This document shows positions 151 through 5,846 of a stretch of DNA of 5,846 bases, piece after piece. How positions within the stretch are numbered: position 1 is the stretch's first letter; every line of letters begins with the position of its first letter. Position numbers and translations under genes: made by a program. The stretch comes from Deltaproteobacteria bacterium (GTDB lineage Bacteria; Campylobacterota_A; Desulfurellia; JAGGSF01): positions 1-5,846 of the forward strand of contig JAGGSF010000069.1 of the NCBI GenBank assembly GCA_021159235.1, read 5' to 3'. Under the pieces are notes generated by a model, which saw nothing but the letters and a program-made list of their open reading frames with translations, was not told where the DNA came from and did no database searches.

Positions 151-1143
151 ATGAAAAAGACGATTTATATCTTTTCCGATGGTGAACTGAAGCGAAAACA
201 AAATACCCTGTTTTTTGAAAATGAAGATGGGAAAAAGTATGTGCCGGTGGAAAATACAGGTGAAATTATGGTGTTTGGTGAGGTAACAATTAACAAACGC
301 ATCCTGGAATTTCTTACCCAGAATGAAATTATTTTGCATTTTTTCAATCATTATGGTTATTATGTTGGTTCCTTTTATCCCAGGGAACATCTTAATTCAG
401 GATATATGATATTAAAGCAAGCTGAACATTATCTGAATAAAAATAAGCGTATGGCTCTTGCTATAAAATTTGTCCATGGAGCAAAAGAAAACATCATTCG
501 TGTGCTCAGGTTTTATGCAAATCGGGGAAAATCTGTTCAATCTGCCCTTGAAAACATAGAATCACTTGCAGAAATCATTCCAGATTGCTCAAATATCAAT
601 GAACTTATGGCCATTGAAGGAAATATTAGGGAACAATATTACAACTGCTTTGACGAAATCCTGGATAATAAGCATTTTGTATTTGAAGAAAGGACAAGAA
701 GACCACCTCAAAATAGATTGAATGCCTTAATCAGTTTTGGGAATTCCATGATATATACCATTGTTTTAAGTGAAATCTATAAAACTCATTTAGACCCCCG
801 TATTGGCTTTTTACATGAAACAAATTTTAGAAGGTTTAGCTTGAATTTAGATGTAGCGGAGACATTTAAACCACTTATCGTAGATCGTCTCATCTTCAAG
901 CTTGTAAACAAAAACATCACTACACCCCAGCACTTTGAAAAAAGATTAAACGGAATAGTATTGAATGAAAAAGGCAGGGAACTGTTTATAAGGGAAATGG
1001 ATGAAAGGCTAAAGACCACACTTAAACACAAAAGCTTAGGAAGAAATGTATCGTATAGAACATTGATTCACCTTGAATTGTATAAAATAGAAAAGCACCT
1101 GATGGGTGAAAGTGAATATGAACCTTATGTTTCTGGATGGTAA
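151..1143 (+). CDS. cas1: CRISPR-associated integrase/endonuclease Cas1, type I-B-like
   Basis: Cas1 is the catalytic subunit of the Cas1-Cas2 complex that integrates new spacers at the leader end of the array. At 330 residues it has the usual length for the type I-B group. The N-terminal part (about 1-75) matches the beta-rich domain, and the rest is the helical catalytic domain. Family metal-ligand motifs are visible: Glu156 in MAIEGNIR, His222 in GFLHETNFRR, and Glu237 in LDVAETFKPLIVDR. The H-to-E spacing of 15 residues fits known Cas1 proteins. All three ligands are present, so the enzyme looks intact. The ATG at 151 is preceded by GTGAGG at 137-142. The stop codon (TAA 1141-1143) directly touches the cas2 ATG, so the two genes are surely cotranscribed. 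No cas4 or interference gene is visible upstream within the window. Assignment to I-B rests on the family motifs together with the repeat type. Confidence 0.98.
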   Translation: MKKTIYIFSDGELKRKQNTLFFENEDGKKYVPVENTGEIMVFGEVTINKRILEFLTQNEIILHFFNHYGYYVGSFYPREHLNSGYMILKQAEHYLNKNKRMALAIKFVHGAKENIIRVLRFYANRGKSVQSALENIESLAEIIPDCSNINELMAIEGNIREQYYNCFDEILDNKHFVFEERTRRPPQNRLNALISFGNSMIYTIVLSEIYKTHLDPRIGFLHETNFRRFSLNLDVAETFKPLIVDRLIFKLVNKNITTPQHFEKRLNGIVLNEKGRELFIREMDERLKTTLKHKSLGRNVSYRTLIHLELYKIEKHLMGESEYEPYVSGW

Positions 1144-1407
1144 ATGTTTGCAATTCTTGTATATGACATAAATGAAAAGAGAGTGGCGAAGATACTGAAG
1201 ATATGCAGAAAATATCTCGTATGGGTCCAAAATTCTGTGTTTGAAGGTGAAATCACGAAAGCGAAGCTGGAAAAATTAAAGATGGAACTCAAGAAGGAAA
1301 TAAATGAAAAGGAAGACTCTGTAATAATCTACACTTTCAGAACCACCCGGTACAGTAATCGTGAGATTATGGGATTAGAAAGGGGCGGGCAGGACATAAT
1401 CCTATAA
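1144..1407 (+). CDS. cas2: CRISPR-associated protein Cas2
   Basis: Cas2 is the small ferredoxin-fold protein that bridges two Cas1 dimers and measures the spacer during integration. The 87-residue product has the family opening strand MFAILVYDINEKRV with the conserved Asp8, a central helix (KILKICRKYLVWVQNSVFEGE) and a later strand, SVIIYTFRT. Length and order of elements are normal. It begins immediately after the cas1 stop with no gap. The only Shine-Dalgarno-like bases (GGATGG, 1135-1140) lie within the cas1 3' end and very close to the ATG, so translation is probably coupled to cas1. The last codons lie in an inverted repeat (1368-1377 with 1397-1406). The CRISPR leader starts right after the stop, so this end of the array is where acquisition takes place. 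Confidence 0.96.
   Translation: MFAILVYDINEKRVAKILKICRKYLVWVQNSVFEGEITKAKLEKLKMELKKEINEKEDSVIIYTFRTTRYSNREIMGLERGGQDIIL
1368..1406 (+). other. Hairpin overlapping the cas2 stop
   Basis: TATGGGATTA (1368-1377) can pair along its whole length with TAATCCTATA (1397-1406), with one G-U wobble and a purine-rich 19-base loop. The hairpin covers the end of cas2. No T-run follows, so it is not a classical terminator. It might mark the 3' end of the cas mRNA or separate cas2 from the leader, or it may be chance. The pairing is seen in the sequence; the role is not known. Confidence 0.25.
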
Positions 1408-1557
1408 ATCAAAATTCGTCCATGTATGATGATGCAAAAACACTCAGGGATAGACGAATATAAATTACTTGTTTTTTCAACAAAATATTGATATACAAAG
1501 ATTGTGAAATGTTGCTCTTTGAAAATTTAGCATCGCATAACTGTGGGAATGCAACGA
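1408..1557 (+). promoter_or_regulatory. CRISPR leader
   Basis: This 150-bp AT-rich non-coding stretch lies between the cas2 stop and the first repeat. Its position beside cas1-cas2, and the fact that the repeats at this end are all perfect while decay is at the other end (3438, 3476-3501), identify it as the leader. It holds an inverted repeat ATTCGTC (1414-1420) / GACGAAT (1453-1459) and a shorter pair GTTGC (1511-1515) / GCAAC (1551-1555) that brackets the leader-repeat junction. These could be docking sites for the integrase or a helper protein, which is inference. The leader also contains the array promoter (1469-1497). Confidence 0.9.
1469..1497 (+). promoter_or_regulatory. Predicted pre-crRNA promoter in the leader
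   Basis: TTGTTT (1469-1474) and TATACA (1492-1497) are separated by exactly 17 bases and fit sigma-70 -35 and -10 boxes well. Transcription would start near 1504, about 54 bases before the first repeat, and read through the array in the orientation that places ATTGAAAT at the 3' end of each repeat. This is a sequence match only; no other hexamer pair in the leader is better. Confidence 0.6.
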
Positions 1558-1587
1558 GTTTTTACCCTACCTATGAGGAATTGAAAT

Positions 1588-1623
1588 TTCTTCATTTGGA
1601 AAAAGCATGCTTTTTCATATAAC
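1588..1623 (+). repeat. Spacer 1 (newest), containing an 18-bp palindrome
   Basis: The leader-proximal, and therefore most recently acquired, spacer is 36 bp. It contains a perfect 18-bp palindrome at 1599-1616, GAAAAAGCA followed by its reverse complement TGCTTTTTC. The A-tract/GC/T-tract form resembles a short bidirectional transcription terminator, so the protospacer may lie between genes of the targeted element. The source is unknown. Confidence 0.85.
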
Positions 1624-1719
1624 GTTTTTACCCTACCTATGAGGAATTGAAATGATGATGAACTTCCACCTTGCACACCTGAGGAAAGAGTTTTTACCCT
1701 ACCTATGAGGAATTGAAAT

Positions 1720-1757
1720 TTGCTTCCTCAAGCTTTCGAAGAGCTTGAGGAAGTGAT
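1720..1757 (+). repeat. Spacer 3, containing a 12-bp-arm hairpin
   Basis: This 38-bp spacer contains perfect 12-bp arms CTTCCTCAAGCT (1723-1734) and AGCTTGAGGAAG (1742-1753) around a 7-base loop, TTCGAAG. The hairpin fills most of the spacer, so the resulting guide would be strongly self-paired unless opened by the effector complex. It may come from a terminator or a replication-origin palindrome in the target. Confidence 0.85.
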
Positions 1758-2051
1758 GTTTTTACCCTACCTATGAGGAATTGAAATTATAAGGGCTATG
1801 GAGCATACCCATACTTGTGGCTTCGTTTTTACCCTACCTATGAGGAATTGAAATTGAGCTCACGGATGAAGTCAAAAAACAAATTCTAAAGTTTTTACCC
1901 TACCTATGAGGAATTGAAATTATTCTTCTAGGAGCTTAGCGTCCTCTACAGGGCGGTTTTTACCCTACCTATGAGGAATTGAAATCGAACGATTTAAGGC
2001 TTATATCTAAGGGGATTTATTGTTTTTACCCTACCTATGAGGAATTGAAAT

Positions 2052-2089
2052 ACACGGAAAATGTAATCTTCAAGATGAGCGTCCAGCCT
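2052..2089 (+). repeat. Spacer 8, sibling of spacer 22
   Basis: This 38-bp spacer opens with ACACGGAAAATGTAATC (2052-2068), which is repeated exactly at the start of spacer 22 (2976-2992). The remainder differs. On the reverse strand it reads without stops as RLDAHLEDYIFR. The shared end is the PAM-proximal (seed) side expected for a type I system. See the matching finding. Confidence 0.9.
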
Positions 2090-2647
2090 GTTTTTACCCT
2101 ACCTATGAGGAATTGAAATATAGTGTCAAATCCGTTTCGCTGTTCACGGCTACAAGTTTTTACCCTACCTATGAGGAATTGAAATTTCCGCCAGCATTCT
2201 TAATATCGCACCTTTTGAATGGTTTTTACCCTACCTATGAGGAATTGAAATGATAAAATGATCGTAACAATTGAAAGAAAACTATCGTTTTTACCCTACC
2301 TATGAGGAATTGAAATCCTTTTTTCCATAGATAAGTTCAACCATAAAAGGAATGTTTTTACCCTACCTATGAGGAATTGAAATTGGGATAACAGAGAAAC
2401 GCATAAAAACAAGAAAACAGTTTTTACCCTACCTATGAGGAATTGAAATTATTCTCCCTAACCATTTGTAAGGATACATCTCACGTTTTTACCCTACCTA
2501 TGAGGAATTGAAATTTCGCTCTGACCACGAAAAATAATCCCTGCACGGCTGTTTTTACCCTACCTATGAGGAATTGAAATTAAGAGTTTCAAGATTTGTT
2601 CTTCAATTTCTTTGGATGTTTTTACCCTACCTATGAGGAATTGAAAT

Positions 2648-2682
2648 GTTCGTTCAGTCTCTCAGCCATCTTTCCACCCCTT
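2648..2682 (+). repeat. Spacer 17, apparently spanning a gene start
   Basis: Read on the reverse strand, this 35-bp spacer has a Shine-Dalgarno-like AAGGGGTGG, then a short gap, then ATG and open codons giving MAERLNE. This suggests that the protospacer covers the ribosome-binding site and first codons of a gene of the targeted element. It is inference from pattern only. Confidence 0.5.
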
Positions 2683-2975
2683 GTTTTTACCCTACCTATG
2701 AGGAATTGAAATCTCTGTGGACGGAAACTTATTCATGAGAAAGTCAATCGTTTTTACCCTACCTATGAGGAATTGAAATAAATCCTCTCAGTTAAAGGTT
2801 GTATAAATGTCTGCGTTTTTACCCTACCTATGAGGAATTGAAATAAGGTTGAACCTCTGGAGATAGGCTCCTGCCTCATGTTTTTACCCTACCTATGAGG
2901 AATTGAAATTCAGTTAGTTTGGTTTAACTCTGTTTCCCTATCTTAGTTTTTACCCTACCTATGAGGAATTGAAAT

Positions 2976-3012
2976 ACACGGAAAATGTAATCCTGTAAGC
3001 TGGTCTCCATTT
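2976..3012 (+). repeat. Spacer 22, sibling of spacer 8
   Basis: This 37-bp spacer has the same first 17 bases as spacer 8 and a diverged remainder. On the reverse strand, in the frame matching spacer 8, it reads METSLQDYIFR with no stop. It lies fourteen spacers further from the leader than spacer 8, so it was captured earlier. Confidence 0.9.
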
Positions 3013-3042
3013 GTTTTTACCCTACCTATGAGGAATTGAAAT

Positions 3043-3078
3043 TAGGAACAGAAATCTTTATTTCTGCTCCCTCAATAA
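3043..3078 (+). repeat. Spacer 23, containing an 11-bp-arm hairpin
   Basis: GGAACAGAAAT (3045-3055) pairs with ATTTCTGCTCC (3060-3070) with one mismatch across a CTTT loop. It is the third strongly self-complementary spacer in the array. No T-run follows the stem on this strand. Confidence 0.75.
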
Positions 3079-3438
3079 GTTTTTACCCTACCTATGAGGA
3101 ATTGAAATCATATAAGGCTTAAAACCCGTTTTAGGTGTGCATTTGTTTTTACCCTACCTATGAGGAATTGAAATATTCTTATTACAAAAAAACTGCCGGG
3201 AGCACGAGTTGTTTTTACCCTACCTATGAGGAATTGAAATCACCTTCTGAGCCTGATTATCCATTATGTGTTTAAGTTTTTACCCTACCTATGAGGAATT
3301 GAAATATGGAAGTTGCGGCGGCGATAGATGAGCTGATGAGAGAGTTTTTACCCTACCTATGAGGAATTGAAATTTTTATTACATCTTCTATTGTTTTAGC
3401 TGTTTCTTGTTTTTACCCTACCTATGAGGAATTGAAAG

Positions 3439-3475
3439 AAGACAGGTATTGGGTGTTAGGCGTCAGGTATTGGGA
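3439..3475 (+). repeat. Last spacer, a short tandem repeat
   Basis: The 37-bp segment between repeat 29 and the decayed repeat contains CAGGTATTGGG twice (3443-3453 and 3464-3474) with a 21-bp period. It is G- and T-rich on this strand with only three C residues. It looks like a fragment of the GTATTGGGTGTTAGG kind of minisatellite found between genes in various bacterial genomes, not a typical viral spacer. It could be a very old spacer or non-spacer DNA at the array end. Confidence 0.7.
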
Positions 3476-3501
3476 GGTTTTACCCTACCTGTGAGGAATT
3501 G
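3476..3501 (+). repeat. Decayed terminal CRISPR repeat
   Basis: Aligned to the 30-bp repeat from 3476, this copy has G for T at repeat position 2, G for A at position 16, and has lost the final AAAT (TCTG instead). The core TACCCTACCT and GAGGAATTG remain. With no crRNA handle sequence beyond ATTG, it is probably not processed. It marks the trailer end of the array, and decay at the end distal to the leader is usual. Confidence 0.9.
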
Positions 3502-3563
3502 TCTGCTTGCGCTAAAGCTTCAGCGGATTTTAAGATTCCAGATCACCGATGCAGGCAGTAAGG
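3502..3563. other. Convergent gap between array and M48 gene, weak terminator candidate
   Basis: Transcription from the array (plus) and from the M48 gene (minus) converge on this 62-bp gap, so a terminator is expected. The only candidate is the imperfect palindrome CGCTAAAGCTTCAGCG (3510-3525, one mismatched pair), followed on the plus strand by ATTTT. The stem is short and the T-run weak, so I would not rely on it. Nothing else is seen here. Confidence 0.3.
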
Positions 3564-4349
3564 TTATTTATTTTCCGGATGGTAATACGTTAGTGCTTCC
3601 GGCAGAAGCCGTTTTATAGCTTCTATCCGTTTTTCATCTGTTGGATGGTCGGAGAGAAACTCAGGAATCTTATACCCTTTTTGTTCTCTCAACATGCGAT
3701 TCCAGAACACCAGAGCACCCCTCGGGTCATAACCTGCCTTTGCCATAAAGATAAGGCCAAGATGGTCTGCTTCGTATTCCTGAATACGACTGTAGGGTAA
3801 AATAACACCCAATTGAGCTCCCAGACCATAAGCGATTAAAAAGGCTTTAGAGCGCGCTTCTGAACCTTTTTCTAAAGCCGCAGCAAGAGCATCTTCTCCC
3901 ACCTGAGCTACCAACAACATACTCAACCTCTCTGCTCCGTGACGAGCAATAGCATGACCAATTTCATGTGCTAAAACTGTAGATAGGCCATTTTCATCCC
4001 GTGTATATTTCAAAATACCTGTATAAACAAAGACCTTCCCTCCCGGCAAACAAAAGGCATTAGCTGTTTCCGGGTCATCTATAACCGTAAATTCCCAGGG
4101 AAGATCTGTTCTTCCCGTTGCTTCAGCAATGCGCCAACCCACCTTATTCACCATATTCACTATCCGAGGATCCTTGCATATCTTAGCCTTCTTTAGAATC
4201 TCCTCACGCACCTCAAGCCCCAAAGCCAATTCAGTTTGAGGGTCAATAAGAATCAACTGTTTTCTTTGAGTAAAGGGAACTGTAGCACATGAAGACAAAA
4301 TTAAAAGTGTAAGCAAATATAAACCAAATTTCCTAATTTTGCCTTTCAA
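3564..4349 (-). CDS. M48-family zinc metallopeptidase, lipoprotein
   Basis: This is a predicted periplasm-facing, membrane-anchored zinc protease of the M48 family, of the LoiP/BepA-like kind that degrades misfolded envelope or outer-membrane proteins. Numbering is from the TTG at 4349 (261 residues). Residues 1-20 form a basic, hydrophobic signal peptide ending in the lipobox LSSC with lipidated Cys21, then ATVPFTQRKQL, a typical opening for this group. Zinc-site residues are HEIGH (His128, Glu129, His132) and Glu191 in the EYEAD motif (with Asp195). DHPTDEKRI near the C-terminus carries His235, which may match the switch histidine described in BepA. There are no TPR repeats. Start choice: an upstream in-frame TTG at 4364 overlaps the Shine-Dalgarno GAGGAGG (4356-4362). 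The TTG at 4349 lies 6 bases beyond that site and gives a better signal peptide. The gene is divergent from the folding-factor gene at 4471, which fits a shared envelope-stress role. All key residues are present. Confidence 0.93.
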   Translation of the reverse strand: MKGKIRKFGLYLLTLLILSSCATVPFTQRKQLILIDPQTELALGLEVREEILKKAKICKDPRIVNMVNKVGWRIAEATGRTDLPWEFTVIDDPETANAFCLPGGKVFVYTGILKYTRDENGLSTVLAHEIGHAIARHGAERLSMLLVAQVGEDALAAALEKGSEARSKAFLIAYGLGAQLGVILPYSRIQEYEADHLGLIFMAKAGYDPRGALVFWNRMLREQKGYKIPEFLSDHPTDEKRIEAIKRLLPEALTYYHPENK

Positions 4350-4470
4350 TGCTAACCTCCTCAAAAATTATAATACACAAATTGGGTGTTTATTGGAAGT
4401 AGATTAAGCATCTTGACCTTCAGACAAATATTTTGTAAAAAGGCTTTAAAAACAGAGAGGGGTAGAGAGC
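4350..4470. promoter_or_regulatory. Divergent promoter region between protease and PPIase genes
   Basis: For the plus-strand gene, TTGACC (4413-4418) and TAAAAA (4436-4441) are 17 bases apart and make a plausible promoter with a start near 4448. The spacer of that promoter carries a small operator-like inverted repeat, ACAAA TAT TTTGT (4424-4436). GAGGGG (4457-4462) is the likely Shine-Dalgarno of the GTG start. For the minus-strand gene, the self-complementary ATTATAAT (4367-4374) supplies a perfect TATAAT but no good -35. A start from it would fall at or inside the Shine-Dalgarno (4356-4362), so it is doubtful. No known regulator site is recognised. Confidence 0.4.
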
Positions 4471-5846
4471 GTGTTACAAATAATAAGAAAAAATCTAAAG
4501 CATTTGAGTATCCTGGTATGGATAGGCGTCGCTGCATTTGTTATCGCCGGTGCTTTCCTGTTCGTAAGTGGCCCTTTTCACATGGGAAAAGATGTGGTGG
4601 CAAAAGTCAACAAAACAACTATTACTGTGTCAGACTTTCAAAATACATACCGGCACCTGTATCATTTCTACTCTCAGCTTTTTCCCAATCTTACCGATGA
4701 AAACCTGAAAAAGCTGAATTTAAAGCAAAAAGCATTGGATATGCTGATAAATAGAGCACTCCTCATTCAGGAAGCTGAAAAGAGAAATATAAAAGCAACG
4801 GATGAAGAGGTGCAGAAAGCAATAGAAAACATGAGCGTTTTCTGGGACAAACCCGGACATTTCTCACAACAAAGGTATTTCGCCATATTAAAGATGAACG
4901 GTATTCAGCCCAGAGATTTTGAAGCTTCTCGAAGAACAGATATAATCATAGATAAACTGAAAAACAGTGTAGCATCAAAAGTTTTTGTCAGTGATAACGA
5001 AATAAAGAATTATATTGACGAAAACTATACTCCCATCAGGTTAGACTATGTAAAATTGGACAGAAGGTTACTGGCAAGAGATATCAAAATCCAGACTAAA
5101 GATATAAAATCCTTCTACCACGAACATAAAAATATCTTCAGGGTGCCTGTAAAAATAAAGGTTGTATATACAGAGATCACTCCGAAATTTGCAGAAAAGA
5201 GTGTAAAGATTGATGAAGATGAAATACTAAGTTACTACAACAGACATCAAAGTCAATTTATCGTTCCAGAAAAAAGGGAGGTATACCACATACTGGTAAA
5301 AATTCCCCCCAGAGAGGATGATAAAGAGTGGAAAAAGGGGAAAGAAAAGATAGACAGAATCTACAGGGAATTGAAGAGTGGAAAAGATTTCGCAACACTG
5401 GCAAAGAAATATTCAGAAGATCCTTTCTCCAAAAAGAAAGGAGGCTATCTGGGTTATATAACGAGAGATAAAGTGGTAAATGAATTTGGAAATGTTGTTT
5501 TTCATTTGAAGAAGGGAGAAATATCAAAACCGTTCAAAACAATCTATGGGTATCATATCGCAAAGGTCACAGATATAAAACCAGAACATATTTTGCCACT
5601 TGAAGATGTAAAAGAAAAAATCGTGAAAAAATTGCGGGTGGAAAAATCGAAAAGAAACGTTTTTAGAGAAGCAAAAAAATTGCAGGTTGAATTGAGAAAA
5701 AATCCTGAAAACTTTGAGCAGATTGTTCAATCAAAAGGATTGAAAGCAGTAAAAACAGGGTTCTTCTCCATGGAAGATGTAAAAAAGCCTTTAAACAAAG
5801 AAGTAGTTGAACAATCCTTATATATGGATGAGGGAAAGGTGAGTGA
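4471..5846 (+). CDS. SurA/PpiD-like membrane-anchored peptidyl-prolyl isomerase, 3' end missing
   Basis: The reading frame stays open for 458 codons and leaves the window without a stop. It encodes a periplasmic folding factor that combines chaperone and prolyl-isomerase activity and is anchored in the inner membrane. Residues 1-11 are basic, and about 12-33 form one membrane segment (ILVWIGVAAFVIAGAFLFV). Residues 45-190 resemble the SurA-type N-terminal chaperone domain: AKVNKTTITVSDFQNTY, then LINRALLIQEAEKRNI. Residues 269-368 form a parvulin (PPIC) domain with YHILVKI (His273), SEDPFSKKKGGYLGYI and a closing GYHIAKV (His362). One transmembrane helix plus one parvulin domain matches PpiD, which is about 620 residues in E. 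coli, so roughly a quarter is probably missing. The GTG at 4471 is chosen because the frame is closed by TAA at 4447-4449, GAGGGG lies 8 bases upstream, and the membrane segment follows directly. It is divergent from the M48 lipoprotein gene. Confidence 0.93.
   Translation, partial: MLQIIRKNLKHLSILVWIGVAAFVIAGAFLFVSGPFHMGKDVVAKVNKTTITVSDFQNTYRHLYHFYSQLFPNLTDENLKKLNLKQKALDMLINRALLIQEAEKRNIKATDEEVQKAIENMSVFWDKPGHFSQQRYFAILKMNGIQPRDFEASRRTDIIIDKLKNSVASKVFVSDNEIKNYIDENYTPIRLDYVKLDRRLLARDIKIQTKDIKSFYHEHKNIFRVPVKIKVVYTEITPKFAEKSVKIDEDEILSYYNRHQSQFIVPEKREVYHILVKIPPREDDKEWKKGKEKIDRIYRELKSGKDFATLAKKYSEDPFSKKKGGYLGYITRDKVVNEFGNVVFHLKKGEISKPFKTIYGYHIAKVTDIKPEHILPLEDVKEKIVKKLRVEKSKRNVFREAKKLQVELRKNPENFEQIVQSKGLKAVKTGFFSMEDVKKPLNKEVVEQSLYMDEGKVS

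What the first reader, a model, noticed from the sequence alone, without database searches (positions are those of the whole stretch)
2052..3012. Two spacers (8 and 22) captured from the same site of two related elements
Spacers 8 (2052-2089) and 22 (2976-3012) start with the same 17 bases, ACACGGAAAATGTAATC, then match at only about 7 of 20 ungapped positions. Among 378 spacer pairs, a 17-base shared start is not expected by chance (about 2 in 100 million for random sequence). On the reverse strand both are open in the same frame: RLDAHLEDYIFR and METSLQDYIFR. Differences such as L/M, D/E and E/Q are mostly conservative. This suggests homologous coding protospacers from two diverged viruses or plasmids, captured at different times at the same PAM and on the same strand. 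The shared part is the seed side for type I systems. The site may be a favoured capture point, or the host re-armed itself against a relative whose distal target region had drifted. It could be used to find the conserved target gene.
Basis: partly seen in the sequence, partly recalled or inferred. Interest (0 to 1): 0.75.

Follow-up and report, generated by a model that had tools for sequence, protein, structure and literature searches.

The report
Two CRISPR spacers sharing a 17-base start
A bacterial CRISPR memory bank holds two entries that begin with the same 17 bases and then differ, most likely because the cell sampled the same spot of two related invaders at different times; this is rare in a survey of similar arrays, but it is ordinary CRISPR behaviour and the invaders could not be found.

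Summary
Spacers 8 (2052-2089) and 22 (2976-3012) share their first 17 bases exactly; no other spacer pair in the array shares more than 9. Chance gives about 5 in 100 million over 378 pairs. In a survey of 1,670 spacers from 51 genomes with the same repeat core, this is the only non-identical same-start pair of 10 bases or more among 70,139 within-genome pairs. All 13 mismatches fall after base 17, so a mutated duplicate does not fit, and the differing halves match no other spacer, so array recombination does not fit either. The best reading is two separate captures at the same start and strand from two related elements, spacer 22 first. The stronger claims are unproven. No protospacer was found in phages, plasmids, IMG/VR, the host genome or 385 other genomes, so the shared PAM, target gene and re-arming are untested. 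The 'homologous peptide' is weak: best-frame p=0.03, and three frames are open in both spacers. DNA beyond base 17 is no more alike than chance. A mosaic junction or repeated motif fits as well. The assembly lacks the tested type I-B and type III effector genes, so a type I seed is inferred.

The parts
2052..2089 (+). spacer 8 (38 nt), the younger of the pair
   Evidence: between repeats 2022-2051 and 2090-2119
2976..3012 (+). spacer 22 (37 nt), the older of the pair
   Evidence: between repeats 2946-2975 and 3013-3042
2052..2068 (+). shared 17-mer ACACGGAAAATGTAATC in spacer 8
2976..2992 (+). shared 17-mer ACACGGAAAATGTAATC in spacer 22
1558..3504 (+). CRISPR array: 29 repeats of 30 nt plus a degenerate terminal repeat (3476-3504)
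1408..1557 (+). presumed leader, 69% A+T, between cas2 and the first repeat
   Evidence: position next to cas2, composition, degenerate repeat at the other end
151..1143 (+). cas1, I-B kind
   Evidence: TIGR03641 cas1_HMARI, 484 bits, over cut-off
1144..1407 (+). cas2
   Evidence: TIGR01573, 56.7 bits, over cut-off

Best explanation
The two spacers were captured separately by Cas1-Cas2 at the same start point and on the same strand of two related but different invading elements (or two variants of one element). Spacer 22 came first and spacer 8 came 14 acquisitions later, since new spacers enter at the cas2/leader end. The elements were identical for at least 17 bases from the capture point and different beyond. 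Shown: exact shared start, abrupt boundary, no array-internal source, rarity. Inferred: a shared PAM just upstream, the order of capture, and the origin in viruses or plasmids. Possible but untested: the crRNA of spacer 22, matching the first 17 bases of the second element, primed the later capture.
For: 17-base shared start with expectation 5e-8. All 13 mismatches lie beyond base 17 (p=2e-5 under uniform mutation). The 17-mer is absent elsewhere in the host. The distal halves match no other spacer by more than 8 nt. The pair starts at position 1 in both, as PAM-anchored capture predicts. It is unique among 70,139 within-genome pairs in 51 genomes, while 1.32 million between-genome pairs reach 11 nt at most. 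Precedent for related spacers within one I-B array: Methanomassiliicoccus sp59/sp63 almost identical, sp34/sp49 overlapping by 19 nt (PMC6336856).
Against: No protospacer for either spacer in phages, plasmids, IMG/VR or 386 genomes, so neither the elements nor the PAM have been seen. The distal halves show no DNA homology above chance.
Confidence: 0.68

Rival explanations
1. Mosaic junction or insertion: both elements carry one long identical segment ending 17 bases into the protospacer, where a recombination joint or inserted element begins. The second half is then non-homologous, and there is no drifting protein.
For: Abrupt boundary at base 17 with 17/17 then 7/20 matches. In the DYIFR frame all synonymous positions are identical before the boundary, while the conserved leucine beyond it is CTT in one and TTA in the other.
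Against: Five of the seven distal matches fall on second codon positions of the DYIFR frame, and the best-frame peptide score has p=0.03, a mild hint of homology beyond the boundary.
Confidence: 0.3
2. One reading: homologous coding protospacers of a fast-evolving viral gene, with protein conserved across the whole protospacer.
For: L/M, D/E, A/T, H/S, L/L, E/Q after a shared DYIFR; best open-frame score p=0.03.
Against: Three frames are open in both spacers and the p-value is marginal. No viral contig encodes the hybrid motif or L[EQ]DYIFRV in a plausible frame.
Confidence: 0.3
3. Two copies of a repeated short motif (transposon end, origin repeat, regulatory site) within one element or in unrelated elements, captured separately.
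For: Only 17 bases are shared; no homology is demonstrable beyond.
Against: Both captures begin at exactly the same base of the motif, which needs the PAM to be part of the motif too. The 17-mer hits only one IMG/VR contig, which looks like chance.
Confidence: 0.15
4. Array-internal recombination, or an assembly chimera that joined half of one spacer to another.
For: Whole-spacer duplications do occur in arrays of this repeat type (nine identical pairs in the survey); the assembly is in 122 contigs.
Against: Neither distal half matches another spacer by more than 8 nt. Duplication in the survey copies whole spacers, never halves.
Confidence: 0.05

Closest known systems
Related spacers in one type I-B array: Candidatus Methanomassiliicoccus intestinalis sp59/sp63 and sp34/sp49 (PMC6336856)
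   Same: Within one I-B array, spacers that are near-identical or overlap, in a host whose spacers match a family of related viruses.
   Different: There the viruses (smacoviruses) are known and many PAMs are CCN; here no protospacer is known. The window pair shares start and strand and splits at base 17, whereas sp34/sp49 overlap in opposite orientation.
Primed / interference-driven adaptation in type I systems (PMC5059440, PMC4117759)
   Same: An older spacer with a partly matching target can provoke new captures near the recognition site, even with more than 10 mutations (as stated in PMC5059440).
   Different: Those studies see many new spacers around the priming site. Here a single recapture at the same start is inferred from sequence, and no effector genes of the tested kinds are in the assembly.
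PGZO pair (HGW-Firmicutes-7, L059/L126) in this survey
   Same: Two spacers of one genome overlapping by 20 bases with divergence next to the overlap.
   Different: Opposite orientation and offset starts.

Membership tests
CRISPR array of type I-B | regular identical repeats with unique spacers | tested here: met
   29 repeats, 35-38 nt spacers
CRISPR array of type I-B | Cas1 of the I-B family and Cas2 next to the array | tested here: met
   TIGR03641 484 bits, TIGR01573 56.7 bits
CRISPR array of type I-B | Cas3, Cas5b, Cas7/Csh2 and Cas8b effector genes | tested here: not met
   no Cas3 over cut-off, no Csh2, no Cas8b relative in the assembly; Cas5b was not searched. A relative of the same class has the complete operon directly before cas1. 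The contig breaks 150 bases before cas1, so loss and an assembly gap cannot be told apart. Cas6 is present elsewhere.
CRISPR array of type III | RAMP (Cmr/Csm) genes | tested here: not met
   no PF03787 match in the assembly
Same-PAM recapture from related elements | both spacers begin at the same base and strand of a shared sequence | tested here: met
   shared 17-mer at position 1 of both
Same-PAM recapture from related elements | protospacers in two homologous elements with the same PAM | tested here: inconclusive
   no protospacer found
Primed adaptation | new spacer acquisition dependent on the older spacer and on effector/Cas3 | not testable with these tools
   needs an experiment

The most novel reading that the evidence does not exclude
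A natural record of re-arming at the very same target site: the older spacer 22, its first 17 bases intact against an escaped relative but its distal half defeated, primed capture of spacer 8 at the identical PAM.
Probability: 0.12. Interest if true: 0.5.

Novelty: new member of a known kind. Interest (0 to 1): 0.27.

Why it matters
If the two source elements were found, the pair would give a direct view of how a viral site changed between two captures, and whether the distal part of a protospacer is where escape happens while the PAM-proximal part stays. The survey shows that such same-start partial pairs are rare in arrays of this repeat family, so each one is a pointer to a site sampled twice. 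As it stands it is a lead, not a result.

Tried and rejected
Exact 17-mer in IMG/VR: one hit (L003), inside an unknown-function phage protein (phrog_1194) on the opposite strand to the proposed peptide, judged chance. Degenerate codon pattern for L[EQ]DYIFRV: three hits, all out of frame with the real genes; AGR arginine version: none; wider hybrid motif: none in IMG/VR, and only the array itself among 386 genomes. An alternative frame (W....[KR]ITFSV): 34 hits against roughly 28 expected by my estimate, best spacer identity 25/38. Array against phages and plasmids: only repeat matches and chance-level hits, none at spacers 8 or 22 among the rows listed (six plasmid rows were not shown). Array against 25 genomes of the class: no protospacer evident, mainly other arrays and short low-scoring matches. 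17-mer with one mismatch in 41 genomes: one chance hit in a host gene of G005. Coding patterns for spacers 4, 20 and 26 in IMG/VR: none.

Full report
What is there. The window is one whole contig (C60) of a 1.13-Mb assembly in 122 contigs. It carries cas1 (151-1143, I-B kind), cas2 (1144-1407), a 150-base A+T-rich stretch, and an array of 29 perfect or near-perfect 30-base repeats plus a degenerate one. The degenerate repeat at the right and cas2 at the left put the leader at the left, so spacer 8 is younger than spacer 22 (inference from established array polarity).

The observation. Spacers 8 and 22 share exactly their first 17 bases and no more. The next-best shared stretch among all pairs and orientations is 9 bases. 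With the array's own composition the expected number of such pairs is 5e-8. The 17-mer occurs nowhere else in the host assembly, so it is not a host sequence in the assembled part.

How unusual it is. I fetched arrays with the same repeat core from public genomes and extracted 1,670 spacers from 51 genomes, this window included. Among 70,139 within-genome pairs there are nine full duplicates. The window pair is the only non-identical pair with a shared start of 10 or more bases. In 1.32 million between-genome pairs the longest shared start is 11. Other overlaps exist but with offset or opposite orientation, such as a 20-base antisense overlap in HGW-Firmicutes-7. Several indel-bearing near-copies come from one AT-rich assembly, L067-L120.

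What it is not. A duplicated and mutated spacer would spread its changes, but all 13 lie beyond base 17 (p=2e-5). A patchwork of other spacers would show the distal halves elsewhere in the array, and they match nothing beyond 8 bases.

Coding homology. The proposed peptides LDAHLEDYIFR and METSLQDYIFR are the best-scoring of three frames open in both spacers. Pairs built from the same 17-mer and random spacer tails reach that score in 3% of cases. Five of the seven distal matches are on second codon positions of that frame. Against this, DNA similarity beyond base 17 is at chance (7/20, p=0.26; gapped p=0.62). Also, five codons agree in every synonymous position before the boundary, while the conserved leucine after it uses CTT in one spacer and TTA in the other. 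A mosaic joint explains that abruptness at least as well as a drifting protein. The peptide argument is therefore a hint, not evidence.

Search for the source. No protospacer was found in 50,697 phage records, 72,556 plasmids, IMG/VR by exact 17-mer or by codon-degenerate patterns, or in 386 genomes including the host's own. The hits that did appear are out of frame or at chance level.

The CRISPR system. Cas1 and Cas2 are intact and a Cas6 gene lies on another contig (C57:244-879). No Cas3 over cut-off, no Csh2, no Cas8b relative and no RAMP gene is in the assembly. A relative of the same class (G008) has a complete I-B operon, cas8b-cas7-cas5-cas3-cas4-cas1, with Cas1 58% identical. The contig here breaks 150 bases before cas1, so the effector genes may be lost or just unassembled. 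Another relative (G003) has genes that look like a Cmr set beside a 61% identical Cas1 (judged from its ORFs, not scanned), so the effector type of the window's array should not be taken for granted.

Most likely account. Two captures at one start point and strand from two related elements, separated by 13 other acquisitions. PAM-anchored capture explains why both begin at the same base. Priming by spacer 22 is possible, because a 17-base PAM-proximal match with a ruined distal part is a state in which type I systems are reported to prime (PMC5059440 states that priming occurs with more than 10 mutations), but nothing here tests it. Related spacers within one I-B array are known from Candidatus Methanomassiliicoccus intestinalis (PMC6336856).

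Verdict. Observation confirmed and rare; interpretation partly supported; kind of event known; source unknown. Modest interest.

Noticed in passing
1720-1757 (spacer 3): Spacer 3 is almost entirely a hairpin, CTTCCTCAAGCT-TTCGAAG-AGCTTGAGGAAG, a 12-bp perfect stem (RNA fold -23.4 kcal/mol). Only two of 1,670 surveyed spacers have a stem of 12 bp or more. It may come from a terminator.
   Followed up: partly
1588-1623 (spacer 1) and 3043-3078 (spacer 23): Two more self-complementary spacers: GAAAAAGCATGCTTTTTC is an 18-base perfect palindrome, and CAGAAAT-CTTT-ATTTCTG is a 7-bp hairpin.
   Followed up: partly
1-150, whole assembly: The contig ends just before cas1, and no Cas3 over cut-off, Csh2, Cas8b or RAMP gene was found in an assembly rated 100% complete, although Cas1, Cas2 and Cas6 are there. 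Either the effector is lost or the locus is broken by the assembly.
   Followed up: partly
3439-3475 (spacer 29): The last spacer, before the degenerate repeat, holds an internal direct repeat (CAGGTATTGGG twice).
   Followed up: no
L202 (G000:C57) 3304-5715: The contig with Cas6 also encodes an 803-aa family B DNA polymerase of archaeal look and a THEP1-like NTPase; judged by eye, not scanned.
   Followed up: no
L059 and L126: HGW-Firmicutes-7: two spacers overlap by 20 bases in opposite orientation with a difference right next to the overlap, another case of one site sampled twice.
   Followed up: no
L162 (G003:C12): A Cas1 61% identical to the window's lies beside what look like type III-B Cmr genes, so this Cas1 branch serves more than one effector type in the class.
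   Followed up: no
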